Assembly (NCBI GenBank): GCA_027488905.1
Contig: JAIYAT010000014.1
Location: 1 to 64,000 of the forward strand
Reading direction: 5' to 3'
Source of the DNA: Bacteroidota bacterium
GTDB lineage: Bacteria; Bacteroidota; Bacteroidia; UKL13-3
DNA: 64,000 bases
Part shown: one piece after another, positions 1 through 5,066 of the stretch
How the letters are laid out: each line of letters begins with the position of its first letter
Position numbering within the stretch: position 1 is the stretch's first letter
The notes under the pieces: generated by a model
Database searches by the model: none
The model's input: only the letters and a program-made list of their open reading frames with translations
Told to the model about the DNA's origin: nothing
Translations under genes and position numbers: made by a program

Positions 1-566
1 CCAACCTGGATGCTATCGCAAATGGTTTGAACACAAGTAGAATCTTTCTTGGTTACTTTTAAGCAAACTTTGTATTTACCATTGTTTAAATAGGTTCTAA
101 AGGTTAGTCTACTATCGGAGGAAGTACCATCACCAAAGGTCCATAAGTACCTGTAGTTGGTATCATTTAAGGTAGCAGTAAAATAGATTTTCTTACTATT
201 TGTAGGGTCGTTTTGCTTGGTCCAATTGGCATTGCAAGTATTAGGCGTTTCTACATTTATGGTATCGCAAATAGTTTGTGTGCATGAGGAGTCCTTTTTG
301 GTCACTTTCAAGCAAACACGGTATTTTCCAGTAGTAGGATAAATATGGAAAGTTACTCTACTATCTGAAGAAGTGCTATCTCCAAAGGTCCATAAGTACC
401 TGTAATTGGTATCATTTAAAGTAGCTGTAAAATAATACTTTTTAAAATTATTTGGATCTTTTTGCTTTGTCCAATTGGCATTGCAAAGGTTCTGAGCGTT
501 GATTTCGCTTAGAGAAATGAAGGCAAAAAGAAAAAATAACGCGTTGAGTAGTGAGTGTTTTTTCAT
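1..566 (-). CDS. PKD-repeat secreted protein, N-terminal part (runs off left edge)
   Basis: Reading the minus strand from the ATG at 566 gives a basic, hydrophobic signal peptide ending near INAQ. Two near-identical repeats follow, each with YRYLWTFGDSTSSDSR- and GKYRVCLKVTKKDS-type cores. The WxFGDG-like core and the YxVCLxV strand are typical of PKD beta-sandwich domains. The repeat period is 249 bp (compare 14 with 263), about 83 residues. The stop codon lies outside the window, so total length and any C-terminal sorting domain are unknown. PKD arrays in this phylum usually belong to secreted or surface adhesins and enzymes. The function of this one cannot be read from the visible part. 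Confidence 0.75.
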   Translation of the reverse strand, partial: MKKHSLLNALFFLFAFISLSEINAQNLCNANWTKQKDPNNFKKYYFTATLNDTNYRYLWTFGDSTSSDSRVTFHIYPTTGKYRVCLKVTKKDSSCTQTICDTINVETPNTCNANWTKQNDPTNSKKIYFTATLNDTNYRYLWTFGDGTSSDSRLTFRTYLNNGKYKVCLKVTKKDSTCVQTICDSIQV

Positions 567-1893: not shown

Positions 1894-2291
1894 TTGTTAC
1901 GCTTATGGATGTTCGGGTTAGCGCCGTTATCATCATTGCGCAAACTTAAACAAAAGCTGAGTGTAGCCAAGGCGCTATTTAATTAATTCCCAAAAACATG
2001 ATTTTTCAGATGACCTTGAAAGCCTTTTTAAAACAAAAATTGCATTCCACCTCTTCCAAGCTGTGTTAGGAAGTTTCTTTTAAGTGGATGTAATGTTCGA
2101 TGGGCTGCCATCACGGATGTTCGATGGCTGCCATCACGGATGTTCGATGGCTGCCATCACGGATGTTCGATGGCTGCCATCACGGATGTTCGATGGCTGC
2201 CATCACGGATGTTCGATGGGCTAAACCCATCGTTGCGGTATTACGCCCCTTCAGGGCTGTACAAATCCCATAATCTGAAAGTGCGCAACGC
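1894..2291. repeat. Gene-free spacer holding a tandem array and REP-like hairpins
   Basis: About 400 bp without a convincing gene. The left half (to about 2088) shows no clear structure. The right half holds the 23-bp tandem array, a hairpin with stem CGATGGG/CCCATCG (2214-2232, 5-nt loop) and a GCCC/GGGC mini-hairpin near 2245-2257. It then runs into the 3' end of the transposase gene. Short open frames through the array are artefacts of the repeat. Confidence 0.7.
2091..2220. repeat. 23-bp tandem repeat array with internal dyad
   Basis: Four exact copies of a 23-bp unit occupy 2115-2137, 2138-2160, 2161-2183 and 2184-2206. A 24-bp variant precedes them (2091-2114) and a partial unit follows (2207-2220). 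Each unit carries the small dyad GATGG-CTG-CCATC, so the array is also a chain of mini-hairpins. The last unit merges into the larger hairpin CGATGGG-CTAAA-CCCATCG. There are no spacers, so it is not a CRISPR array. Confidence 0.9.
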
Positions 2292-2744
2292 TTAATCCCA
2301 AACATACTTTTCATCATATTCAACATTATACTTTTTAAGGAAGGTTCGGTATTCACTCTTAAATGAATTCTTATTATGATGTTCATGTTGGTTTGCTATG
2401 TAAGAAATTACTCTTTCAACTTGGGCTGGATTTACCGAAAACGCTCCATAGCCATCTTGCCAATAAAAGTTTTCATAACCTTTACCCTTGGTTTTTATCC
2501 ACTTTGAGGAATGAGATTTTAATTCTTCCATCAGCTTCATTAAAGCGATCTTTTTAGAAAGCATGCATAGGATATGAATATGGTCAGTATAACCACCTAC
2601 TATTATTACTGAGCATTCAAGTTTATTACAGATACCACCAAGGTAAGCATGTAATTCAGCCTCTACCGGTGGAAAAATTAAAGGTTCACGGTACTTGGTA
2701 CTAAATACCAAGTGAACATAGTTTTTTACTAATGACTGTCCCAT
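2292..2744 (-). CDS. REP-associated (IS200/IS605-like) Y1 transposase
   Basis: 150 residues, the usual size for single-domain Y1 HUH transposases. The HUH motif is DHIHIL (His55 and His57), the conserved WQDGYGAFSV segment lies near residues 95-104, and the catalytic tyrosine is probably Tyr115 in ERVISYIANQHEHH. These enzymes cut and rejoin single-stranded DNA at hairpins. No tnpB accompanies it, and it sits between REP-like hairpins, which favours a RAYT (domesticated, REP-mobilising) role over a full insertion sequence. The frame appears intact. The ATG at 2744 is the only sensible start. Confidence 0.88.
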   Translation of the reverse strand: MGQSLVKNYVHLVFSTKYREPLIFPPVEAELHAYLGGICNKLECSVIIVGGYTDHIHILCMLSKKIALMKLMEELKSHSSKWIKTKGKGYENFYWQDGYGAFSVNPAQVERVISYIANQHEHHNKNSFKSEYRTFLKKYNVEYDEKYVWD

Positions 2745-2971: not shown

Positions 2972-4345
2972 CTATTCAATTCTTCTGAATATACTCTCCC
3001 ATATCTTCAACATCGCCAAGGTATCTAAGTGGCAATAGGCTAGCAATTCTTGGCGCAATTGTTCTTGGGCGCTTGGTTCAAGCCGACTCATTTGCCCATA
3101 CATAAAACTGGCAGTTCCTCCTTCTTGAATGGTTAAGTTTTGATAACTTAGTTCGGGCACCAACACGGGCAATATATTTTTAATGGAATAACTTCCTTCA
3201 AAGGCTTCGCTATAAACTATTGCTTTTCCTGGCCTAAATGGCGTCATAAGGTCTACGATACGCGCATGAATGGCCATTAGTTCTTCATGATAATCAGGAA
3301 AATCAATGGCCAATTTAGCTATGATGGTTTTCTCAAAACTCATGTTCCAAGTAACAATGCTGCCGCTTGAACCCAAATCTCTAATCATTTGTTCTATTAG
3401 TTCAGGTCGCGAGTCTAATACGCCATCTCCTAAAAAGGCTTTGTGTAAGGGCGTTTGGTTCAACCCAAATAAAACGTGCAAGGAATATTGAAATGGGATT
3501 TGTTGGTAGGGTCGAGAAAAATTAAATTCGGGTACCCCATACATAATGGTCTCAAAGTCGAAGAAAAATAAAGGGTATTTGAATTCTGCCGTATAGCTTT
3601 CCCATGCGTTCCTATTTAGGTGTATGGTTTGATCCAAAGCAGCACTTTCAACTGGGATTTCTTCAGGATTAGTGTTTTGAGCACTACAATAATCTGAAAA
3701 GTTACAAGCATAGGGCTTATTGCAATGTGGCCCCATTTCAATGTTTGGAATGGATTTGAGGTTTACCAGCTTTTTGAGGTCGGCAATATGCTTACCAATA
3801 AAATCTTGTTGCAGCAAAACTTCCTCCATCACCGACGAAGGTTTAAAAAGCTTACCCACTTCAAGTTCCCCAATGCGCACATATTCTTTATCGAAATGAA
3901 TCACTGAAAAATCGGCTAGGTTCAAACCGCTATTTGCCAAAACATAATATTGCAAAGCTACATCAGCAAGGTGTTGTTCTTTTACACTGTTGGTGGCTTT
4001 TACTTCATAAGCATAAAATTTATTTCCTTTTTGAACCAAAATATCCACCGCGCACAAGACATTATTGAACATAAAAGCCGCTTCGTAGATAACGCGGTAT
4101 TTGAATAATAACTCAGCAGTTCGTTTAACCGTTTTTAGGCTATGAAAGGGTTCTTCCCCTTGTGCATTTACGCCACCAGGAAACAATTGTTGTGCCAGCA
4201 AACCTACATCGGTGCCCGATTGAAACAAGGCCTGCGTGGCTTCATCTTCTGGGTTTGCTAGGGTTTTATGAAAGCGATTAAGATAAAAACGCTTGTGACA
4301 TTGCAAACCATATAGGTAGGTAGTTTTTGATATAGGAGGAAACAT
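2972..4345 (-). CDS. DUF2779 nuclease: Cas4-like PD-(D/E)XK domain fused to DEDD exonuclease
   Basis: 457 residues in two nuclease halves. N-terminal half: Asp100 (AVDILV), Glu113 and Lys115 (YEVKAT) form a PD-(D/E)XK core. Cys16 with Cys207, Cys213 and Cys219 reproduces the split four-cysteine Fe-S arrangement of Cas4/AddB-type RecB nucleases. C-terminal half: FFDFETI (Asp262, Glu264), TWNMSFEK near 331, Asp364 and HLD (Asp440) fit a DEDD RNase-H-like 3'-5' exonuclease. The architecture matches DUF2779 proteins. Activity is predicted from motifs, and the biological role of the family is not established to my knowledge. The DUF1826 gene lies 22 bp upstream on the same strand, so the two may be co-transcribed. 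Confidence 0.75.
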   Translation of the reverse strand: MFPPISKTTYLYGLQCHKRFYLNRFHKTLANPEDEATQALFQSGTDVGLLAQQLFPGGVNAQGEEPFHSLKTVKRTAELLFKYRVIYEAAFMFNNVLCAVDILVQKGNKFYAYEVKATNSVKEQHLADVALQYYVLANSGLNLADFSVIHFDKEYVRIGELEVGKLFKPSSVMEEVLLQQDFIGKHIADLKKLVNLKSIPNIEMGPHCNKPYACNFSDYCSAQNTNPEEIPVESAALDQTIHLNRNAWESYTAEFKYPLFFFDFETIMYGVPEFNFSRPYQQIPFQYSLHVLFGLNQTPLHKAFLGDGVLDSRPELIEQMIRDLGSSGSIVTWNMSFEKTIIAKLAIDFPDYHEELMAIHARIVDLMTPFRPGKAIVYSEAFEGSYSIKNILPVLVPELSYQNLTIQEGGTASFMYGQMSRLEPSAQEQLRQELLAYCHLDTLAMLKIWESIFRRIE

Positions 4346-4367
4346 AGCTATGACAAATGGAGGTGTA

Positions 4368-5066
4368 TTAGCAAATCAATAACAAACGATATTCCCCTTC
4401 GTTTTCTTTGGGTGCTCTATGAATGCAAGGAAGTACCTTTTGTTTTGGATGATCGACGGCCAAGCGCCATAGATGTCCTAATCCTAGATTTGTAGCGTTA
4501 GCTTGAGGATTAGCCTGATAATGTAAATCAAAATAATTGTCTATCAAAAAGCTTTCAAAATCCTCCGAAGAGCCCTTATGTAAATCTTCAAGTTTATTAC
4601 GAATTTCAGGAATTAGAATTTTTTGCGTGGCTTGGTTATTGGGAATGATATCACTTGGTGCACCGTAATACGTGCATAAAAAAGTATCTGTTGCAATGGG
4701 CGAACGATCTACATGAAACGAATACACATCAGTAGATATAAAATCAAAATCCTCATCTCTCTCATAACACTTAAGCAAATTGAGTGTAGGAGAAGCCCCA
4801 ATGTCGAATAATAACTTAAAATCATTAAGGATAATATTTCTAGCAACCTCTCCCCTTTCTGACAAATTGAGTGCTAATAAATCTTTAAGACTAACTTCTG
4901 TTACATTTTCTTTGAGTTGAAGCTTCTTAACAATGGCTTCAAAATCCCCTTCCAAATTCCTAAACCAGCACAGCGCATTCATTTCTCCTATAAAATTTTT
5001 AGTTACTAATTCAGGAAAACTAGATACCATTCCAATTTGAGGATTGTCAAAAAATGTAGGGCTCAT
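4368..5066 (-). CDS. DUF1826-like protein
   Basis: A 232-residue soluble protein with no signal peptide or membrane segment. The central stretch DVYSFHVDRSPIATDTFLCTYYGAP, split here as DVYSFHVDRSPIATD and TFLCTYYGAP, and the late CIHRAPKENEGEYRLLLIC end recall the DUF1826 family. In proteobacteria that family often neighbours zinc-responsive genes. No zinc regulator or transporter is next to it here. It is placed just upstream of, and probably with, the DUF2779 nuclease. The family call is from memory of motifs and the function is unknown. Confidence 0.5.
   Translation of the reverse strand: MSPTFFDNPQIGMVSSFPELVTKNFIGEMNALCWFRNLEGDFEAIVKKLQLKENVTEVSLKDLLALNLSERGEVARNIILNDFKLLFDIGASPTLNLLKCYERDEDFDFISTDVYSFHVDRSPIATDTFLCTYYGAPSDIIPNNQATQKILIPEIRNKLEDLHKGSSEDFESFLIDNYFDLHYQANPQANATNLGLGHLWRLAVDHPKQKVLPCIHRAPKENEGEYRLLLIC

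What the first reader, a model, noticed from the sequence alone, without database searches (positions are those of the whole stretch)
2972..4345. Cas4-like Fe-S nuclease fused to a DEDD exonuclease
Two nuclease domains in one 457-residue protein: PD-(D/E)XK with a split four-cysteine cluster, and a DEDD exonuclease. The combination suggests concerted DNA end processing. It is adjacent to a mobile REP unit and to a DUF1826 gene, but no CRISPR array is in the window.
Basis: partly seen in the sequence, partly recalled or inferred. Interest (0 to 1): 0.5.

Follow-up and report, generated by a model that had tools for sequence, protein, structure and literature searches.

The report
Two-nuclease DUF2779 protein, Cas4-like plus proofreading-like
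This is a real but already described kind of bacterial protein that joins two DNA-cutting domains, one like the CRISPR protein Cas4 and one like the proofreading part of DNA polymerases; its job is unknown, and several distant relatives sit among anti-virus genes.

Summary
Confirmed: window 2972-4345 (-) encodes a 457-aa protein with an N-terminal Cas4-type PD-(D/E)XK nuclease (D101, E114, K116; Cys16 + Cys208/214/220) and a C-terminal DEDDy exonuclease (D263, E265, E338, Y437, D441). An AlphaFold model (mean pLDDT 90) matches Cas4 over residues 1-225 and family-B DNA polymerase exonuclease domains over 256-457. The pairing is not new: a 2014 survey recorded DUF2779 proteins as containing DUF83 and as presumed 3'-5' exonucleases. 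New here: in 67 homologues the DEDD-side residues never vary, whereas PD-(D/E)XK residues changed in 7 (at least three changes on the tree) and the cysteine set is incomplete in 9. DUF2779 loci lie near WYL regulators (13 of 64 within 10 kb, about 0.5 expected) and type I restriction genes (6 of 64, about 0.7 expected). The window's own copy does not: its genome gave no Cas1 match, its nearest neighbours are not recognised defence genes, and a genome of the same genus holds only a decayed remnant at this site. REP and DUF1826 neighbours look incidental. Most likely an accessory DNA-end nuclease. Verdict: new member of a known, uncharacterised family; modest interest.

The parts
2972..4345 (-). 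DUF2779 gene, 457 aa, Cas4-like nuclease + DEDDy exonuclease
3671..4345 (-). N-terminal Cas4-type PD-(D/E)XK domain, residues 1-225
   Evidence: Pfam PF01930 over 99-221; VIA-align to Cas4-containing chain 7mi4_A, Z 13.4, rmsd 3.8, 183 aligned, model 1..225
4298..4300 (-). Cys16, first of four putative [4Fe-4S] ligands
   Evidence: Cys in 59 of 67 homologues
3998..4045 (-). PD-(D/E)XK core D101 ... E114-V-K116
   Evidence: all three kept in 60 of 67 homologues
3686..3724 (-). Cys208, Cys214, Cys220, the other three putative cluster ligands
   Evidence: all four Cys kept in 58 of 67 homologues
2975..3580 (-). C-terminal RNase H-like 3'-5' exonuclease domain, residues 256-457 (holds the DUF2779 match)
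   Evidence: Pfam PF11074 over 260-387; VIA-align to family-B DNA polymerases, best 8g99_A Z 15.1, rmsd 2.9, 174 aligned
3551..3559 (-). Exo I motif D263-F-E265
   Evidence: D and E kept in 67 of 67 homologues
3332..3346 (-). Exo II-like motif N334-x-x-F-E338 (Glu where the DEDD consensus, as recalled, has Asp)
   Evidence: E338 kept in 67 of 67; N334 in 49 of 53 short-form and 0 of 14 long-form homologues
3023..3037 (-). Exo III motif Y437-C-x-L-D441 (DEDDy type)
   Evidence: Y, C and D kept in 67 of 67 homologues

Best explanation
A stand-alone accessory DNA-end nuclease with two active sites in one chain. The N-terminal Cas4/RecB-type domain, held by a probable [4Fe-4S] cluster, grips an end or a single-stranded tail and can cut it. 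The C-terminal domain, built like the proofreading exonuclease of family-B DNA polymerases, removes nucleotides from the 3' end. The 3'-5' exonuclease is the indispensable activity; the Cas4-like half is a loader and second cutter that some lineages have disarmed. The most likely role is clearing linear foreign or damaged DNA, in some hosts alongside restriction. Shown by computation: both folds (as predicted), the motifs, purifying selection, the unequal conservation, the family's neighbourhood signal, and the lack of a Cas1 link in the genomes searched. Inferred: metal and cluster binding, substrate (DNA rather than RNA), polarity, cooperation of the two sites, and the biological role.
For: Fold: model pLDDT 90.3; C-terminal half to pol alpha Z 15.1 and E. 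coli Pol II Z 13.7; N-terminal half to Cas4 Z 13.4; Foldseek's top three rows are Cas4 chains. Motifs: D263/E265/E338/D365/K389/Y437/C438/D441 in 67 of 67 homologues. Unequal loss: PD-(D/E)XK residues changed in 7 of 67, at least 3 changes on the tree; cysteine set incomplete in 9 of 67, one change. Selection: dN/dS 0.11. Context: WYL within 10 kb at 13 of 64 loci (expected 0.49), HSDR_N at 6 of 64 (expected 0.70); tRNA-synthetase control 0 of 64 with the rows entered (expected 0.64) and 1 of 64 with all rows that one search listed (about 0.9 expected in proportion). AAA ATPase - DUF2779 - WYL in tight order on two plasmids and PDDEXK_4 - DUF2779 - WYL on a third. Accessory: 9 of 19 genus genomes, 43 of 296 in a phylum sample; decayed remnant in G005.
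Against: No biochemistry for DUF2779 came up in the searches made (subscription papers are mostly not held). The window's gene has no recognised defence gene beside it. No neighbour family, grouped by BLAST, lies within four genes at more than 7 of 63 loci, so there is no obligate partner. Of 105 neighbours of short-form genes scanned, no defence family matched more than 2 and many matches are housekeeping or secreted proteins (only the 25 commonest families are shown). HSDR_N is not enriched for the short form, to which this protein belongs (1 of 33, 0.38 expected). WYL proteins also regulate DNA-damage responses (PMC9122601 passages), so WYL linkage does not single out defence. The loci are partly related and no correction for kinship was made. 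Three of seven plasmid loci viewed have no WYL gene within 7 kb. Glu instead of Asp at the third position could lower or change exonuclease activity.
Confidence: 0.5

Rival explanations
1. A chromosomal DNA-repair or recombination end-trimming nuclease, not a defence protein: it tidies 3' and 5' ends at breaks or flaps, Dna2- or AddB-like (recalled) without its own helicase.
For: The window locus and many neighbours of short-form genes are not defence genes. In L083 the gene lies beside a long polymerase III alpha-like gene and a DinB-like gene (labels by eye; one of 105 neighbours matched DNA_pol3_alpha). Long-form members of genus g110 (family f44) lie 7-24 kb from one tRNA-synthetase gene in 6 genomes, which suggests a stable core position.
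Against: Patchy: 18 of 60 relatives and 43 of 296 phylum genomes, with decay in G005. WYL enrichment in both forms and HSDR_N enrichment in the long form.
Confidence: 0.25
2. An RNA or nano-RNA exonuclease: the DEDDy half degrades short RNA, with the Cas4-like half as an RNA or end-binding platform.
For: DEDD enzymes include many RNases (recalled). In Mycoplasma bovis a DUF2779 transposon mutant came out of the same cell-culture growth screen as a nanoRNase (NrnA) mutant (PMC7373297, passages).
Against: The nearest folds are DNA polymerase proofreading domains and Cas4. The same screen also yielded DNA replication and RecD genes.
Confidence: 0.1
3. A CRISPR adaptation nuclease that carries both kinds of prespacer trimmer (Cas4 and DEDD) in one chain.
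For: A DEDDh exonuclease can replace Cas4 in prespacer processing (PMC10284694, abstract).
Against: No Cas1 match in the own genome. No association with Cas1 among 60 genomes: 7 of 18 with DUF2779 and 13 of 42 without, Fisher p=0.56. No CRISPR-like array in the window.
Confidence: 0.02

Closest known systems
DUF2779 family (Pfam PF11074; family F.17 of the RNase H-like survey, PMC3985635)
   Same: Same domain over the cut-off; the survey states that F.17 contains DUF83, which resembles PD-(D/E)XK nucleases, and that the family presumably has 3'-5' exonuclease activity (passages).
   Different: Nothing in architecture. What is added here is residue-level conservation, a structure model and a neighbourhood test.
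COG2251 (predicted RecB-family nuclease, PF13482 RNase_H_2 + DUF83)
   Same: Also contains DUF83 next to an RNase H-like exonuclease domain according to PMC3985635; RNase_H_2 weakly matches this protein.
   Different: [quoted passage not shown] here RNase_H_2 is below its cut-off and no AAA or helicase domain matched.
Cas4 (e.g. Pcal_0546, PDB 4r5q; Cas4 of 7mi4)
   Same: Fold of residues 1-225, split four-cysteine set, D...E-x-K core.
   Different: No Cas1 in the genome, extra DEDDy domain, weak sequence similarity (24.4 bits to PF01930; below the NCBIfam cas4 cut-off).
Proofreading exonuclease domain of family-B DNA polymerases
   Same: Fold of residues 256-457; D-x-E and Y-C-x-x-D motifs (the polymerase motifs are recalled).
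   Different: No polymerase domain; Exo II Asp (recalled) replaced by Glu.
UU173 family (NCBIfam NF045869)
   Same: Distant match, 60 bits; the model is 650 positions long, near the size of the long-form homologues (617-683 aa open frames).
   Different: Far below its 225-bit cut-off; this protein is of the short form.

Membership tests
DUF2779 (PF11074) | profile match above the gathering score | tested here: met
   125.5 bits, cut-off 23.3
DUF2779 (PF11074) | DUF83/PD-(D/E)XK partner domain as in family F.17 | tested here: met
   PF01930 24.4 bits, cut-off 22.7; PMC3985635 passage
Cas4 as CRISPR adaptation protein | four cysteines and PD-(D/E)XK core | tested here: met
   C16, C208, C214, C220; D101, E114, K116
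Cas4 as CRISPR adaptation protein | gene linked to cas1/cas2 | tested here: not met
   no Cas1 match in the genome
Cas4 as CRISPR adaptation protein | NCBIfam cas4 equivalog cut-off | tested here: not met
   9.2 bits, cut-off 65
DEDDy 3'-5' exonucleases | D-x-E and Y-x3-D motifs on an RNase H-like fold | tested here: met
   D263/E265, Y437/D441 in 67 of 67; fold of the model
DEDDy 3'-5' exonucleases | Asp in Exo II | tested here: not met
   Glu (E338) in all 67 homologues; D365 is also invariant but lies outside the motif, and no superposition of catalytic residues was made
DEDDy 3'-5' exonucleases | 3'-5' exonuclease activity | not testable with these tools
   needs an assay
UU173 family (NF045869) | curated score | tested here: not met
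   60 bits, cut-off 225
known anti-phage system (PADLOC) | match to a system model other than Cas4 | tested here: not met
   6 families matched at E up to 1, all Cas4

The most novel reading that the evidence does not exclude
DUF2779 proteins are the nuclease of an unrecorded group of defence modules (AAA ATPase - DUF2779 - WYL, and add-ons to type I restriction operons). The polymerase-type 3'-5' exonuclease does the destroying, and the Cas4-like half is a loader that may lose its catalysis. The window's copy would be a strayed or orphaned member.
Probability: 0.3. Interest if true: 0.55.

Novelty: new member of a known kind. Interest (0 to 1): 0.33.

Why it matters
The family has been named for more than a decade, and no assigned function came up in the searches made. 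That the exonuclease half is invariant while the Cas4-like half is repeatedly disarmed, and that relatives keep company with WYL regulators and restriction genes, turns an annotation ('domain of unknown function') into a direct test: plasmid-borne ATPase-DUF2779-WYL operons can be cloned in a laboratory strain and challenged with phage.

Tried and rejected
CRISPR adaptation role: rejected, no Cas1 match in the genome and no co-occurrence.

DUF1826 as partner: rejected. In the 7 genus genomes that hold both genes they are neighbours in 2 (G000, G009) and on different contigs in 5 (G001, G003, G007, G010, G013). The other genus copies of the DUF1826-like gene do not share the window's neighbours either, G005 excepted (flanks of about 1.5 kb only), so relocation in this genus is not special to DUF2779, and I do not claim mobility of DUF2779 on that ground.

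REP unit as functional partner: rejected. REP-like repeats lie beside the remnant in G005, which fits decay next to a repeat, not cooperation.

Sequence search of solved structures gave nothing firm: KmAgo E=0.14 for the single protein, Cas4 4r5q E=0.87 for the profile. The other two Foldseek rows under E=0.001 are large spliceosome chains at probability 0.35 or less. Known phage records gave only 6 partial hits (16% of the query), all in Helicobacter heilmannii phage records.

Limits of the counts; 57 of the 60 DUF2779-positive genomes were used (G041, a fragment at a contig end, and G228 and G295, both under the cut-off, were left out). Positions were copied by hand; two genes with long open frames (G153, G310) were put by hand with the short form, following the alignment; the last weak HSDR_N rows (about 14) were not entered, none of them near a DUF2779 gene. 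The first control used about 103 rows; when I checked the other 47 listed rows, one control match lies within 10 kb (G283, 6.8 kb), so the control is 1 of 64, not 0. One search's list is itself capped. N6_Mtase was listed incompletely and is not counted. Residue counts use 67 homologues of at least 400 aa; shorter fragments, identical rows and the frameshifted copies (L012, L041, L032) were dropped. The context count leaves out six duplicate loci. A2 holds 105 neighbours picked by hand, nearly all from a list of 202 genes. A3 holds 57 of 103 ORFs from 13 of the 19 viral-collection loci. The tree is a quick search with some long branches.

Full report
Observation. ORF 2972-4345 (-) encodes 457 aa. 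Pfam places DUF2779 at 260-387 (E=2e-36) and Cas_Cas4/DUF83 at 99-221 (E=3.5e-5, over its cut-off); RNase_H_2 is weak and under its cut-off. PADLOC gives only Cas4 models. NCBIfam gives the UU173 family far below its cut-off. The gene evolves under purifying selection in both halves (dN/dS 0.11 overall, 0.11 for residues 1-225, 0.09 for 256-457, against the 93%-identical L002).

Structure. AlphaFold2 on a 29-sequence alignment gave mean pLDDT 90.3. Foldseek's best three rows are Cas4 chains (4r5q E=8.8e-5, 8d3l_I, 7mi4_A). VIA-align gives family-B DNA polymerases over residues 256-457 (8g99_A Z 15.1, rmsd 2.9, 174 aligned; E. coli Pol II 3k5o_B Z 13.7, rmsd 2.5, 148 aligned) and Cas4 over 1-225 (7mi4_A Z 13.4, rmsd 3.8, 183 aligned). 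By fold the C-terminal half is therefore a polymerase-proofreading type exonuclease domain. Catalytic residues were not superposed; their assignment rests on motifs.

Conservation. In 67 homologues of 400 aa or more (53 short-form, 14 long-form), D263, E265, E338, D365, K389, Y437, C438 and D441 are invariant. D101, E114 and K116 are all kept in 60 of 67; they are changed in L062, L065, L066, L067, L073, L076 and L078. All four cysteines are kept in 58 of 67; the other 9 are L022-L027 and L029-L031, of which those with a named organism are Patescibacteria or Giovannonibacteria. The two defects do not overlap. On a quick maximum-likelihood tree built without the trait columns, the PD-(D/E)XK change needs at least 3 events and the cysteine change one; such counts cannot tell gain from loss.

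Distribution. The gene occurs in 18 of 60 relatives (9 of 19 in the genus) and in 43 of 296 genomes drawn from the phylum, the own genome counted in both. A scan of species genomes with the window protein found 31 loci, some in Ignavibacteria and Patescibacteria. Of 72,556 plasmid records 30 hold a match, 27 of them over at least 80% of the query. The viral collection gave 19 loci on 18 contigs; phage records gave only 6 partial matches.

Locus history. In G005, same genus and without a DUF2779 match, the order GNAT - Y1 transposase - [site] - DUF1826-like - CapA-like is kept. The site holds two stretches of the gene (nt 237-316 at 92.5% and 434-659 at 85.4% identity), which correspond to parts of the Cas4-like half; no match to the exonuclease half was found, and REP-like 30-nt repeats lie beside it. 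So the gene was present at this site and decayed in G005: it is dispensable there. Elsewhere in the genus its neighbours differ.

Neighbourhood. No neighbour family, grouped by BLAST, lies within four genes at more than 7 of 63 loci, and that one is confined to related loci. Against this background two families are over-represented. WYL lies within 10 kb at 13 of 64 loci in 57 genomes (0.49 expected from copy number and genome size), and HSDR_N at 6 of 64 (0.70 expected). The tRNA-synthetase control gave 0 of 64 with the rows entered (0.64 expected) and 1 of 64 with all rows that one search listed (about 0.9 expected in proportion). By form: WYL 8 of 31 long and 5 of 33 short (0.31 and 0.18 expected); HSDR_N 5 of 31 long and 1 of 33 short (0.32 and 0.38 expected), so restriction linkage is a long-form signal. 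The loci are partly related, so Poisson values would be optimistic. A genus relative (L085, 68% identical) has the gene in one direction with HsdR (HSDR_N at this place) and an HsdS-like gene, beside a GmrSD-like gene (both labels by eye). L113 (G199) has it next to a methylase and HSDR_N gene; L020 has it next to genes that resemble HsdR, HsdM and HsdS (by eye and BLAST).

Plasmids. I viewed 7 of the 30 plasmid loci. A WYL gene lies within 7 kb in 4 of 7 and directly downstream in 3 of 7 (gaps of 60, 1 and 5 bases). In Diaphorobacter and Rhodoferax an AAA ATPase precedes DUF2779 and WYL follows; in Rhodoferax the next genes include two that match the PADLOC candidate PDC-M27. In Aliarcobacter a PDDEXK_4 nuclease (PADLOC candidate PDC-S26) precedes it. 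In Planktothrix a ResIII-type helicase and an HATPase gene (match to MzaB) precede it, and a protein with a weak PLD match follows. In Selenomonas a WYL gene lies 3.3 kb away on the other strand. Croceicoccus and Hydrogenimonas show no such order. Among 57 ORFs scanned beside 13 of the viral-collection loci, the commonest were DNA methylases (7), GmrSD (3) and ParB-like (3) in Pfam, and terminase large subunits matched 3 in PHROGs. PMC9122601 (abstract and passages) reports that 48% of BrxR homologues (WYL regulators) co-localise with phage defence systems; the same passages name WYL regulators of DNA-damage responses, so the link is suggestive, not specific.

Literature. 'DUF2779' occurs in 6 held papers and 'PF11074' in one. 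PMC3985635 (passages) places PF11074 in the 3'-5' exonuclease clade and says that F.17 and COG2251 contain DUF83. A term search of PMC5704561 on Cas4 phylogenomics found no DUF2779. PMC7373297 (passages) lists a Mycoplasma bovis DUF2779 transposon mutant with a growth defect in cell culture. Of the six papers I read passages in two only; those passages report no biochemistry of DUF2779 and no WYL or type I neighbours, and I cannot speak for the rest or for papers not held.

Conclusion. What is added is an unequal-conservation argument that the exonuclease half is the core activity, and a neighbourhood signal that makes a defence role testable for the family, not shown for this locus.

Noticed in passing
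window 2103-2242: Perfect 23-nt tandem repeat, about five copies, just downstream of the Y1 transposase ORF.
   Followed up: no
window 2292-2744 and 2806-2825: REP-associated-type (IS200-like Y1) transposase with a REP-like palindrome; in G005 (L139 about 4272-4391) the same palindrome forms a 30-nt-period array beside the decayed DUF2779 gene.
   Followed up: partly
L088 7844-10341 and L092 5912-8474: Two genus relatives carry a reverse-transcriptase-like gene and a DnaB-N-like gene (both labels by eye) next to or near DUF2779.
   Followed up: no
L012/L088 3723-5101: The DUF2779 copy of one genus relative (G001) is split between two frames, which may be real decay or an assembly error.
   Followed up: partly
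L083 10547-14716: DUF2779 lies next to a DNA polymerase III alpha-like gene and a DinB-like gene, an SOS-mutagenesis-like pair (labels by eye).
   Followed up: no
L151 and L158 (one viral-collection contig, 55 kb): Two DUF2779 genes on one contig.
   Followed up: no
G137, G207, G283, G306, G330, G342 (genus g110): Long-form DUF2779 genes lie 7-24 kb from the same kind of tRNA-synthetase gene, as if at one conserved chromosomal place.
   Followed up: partly
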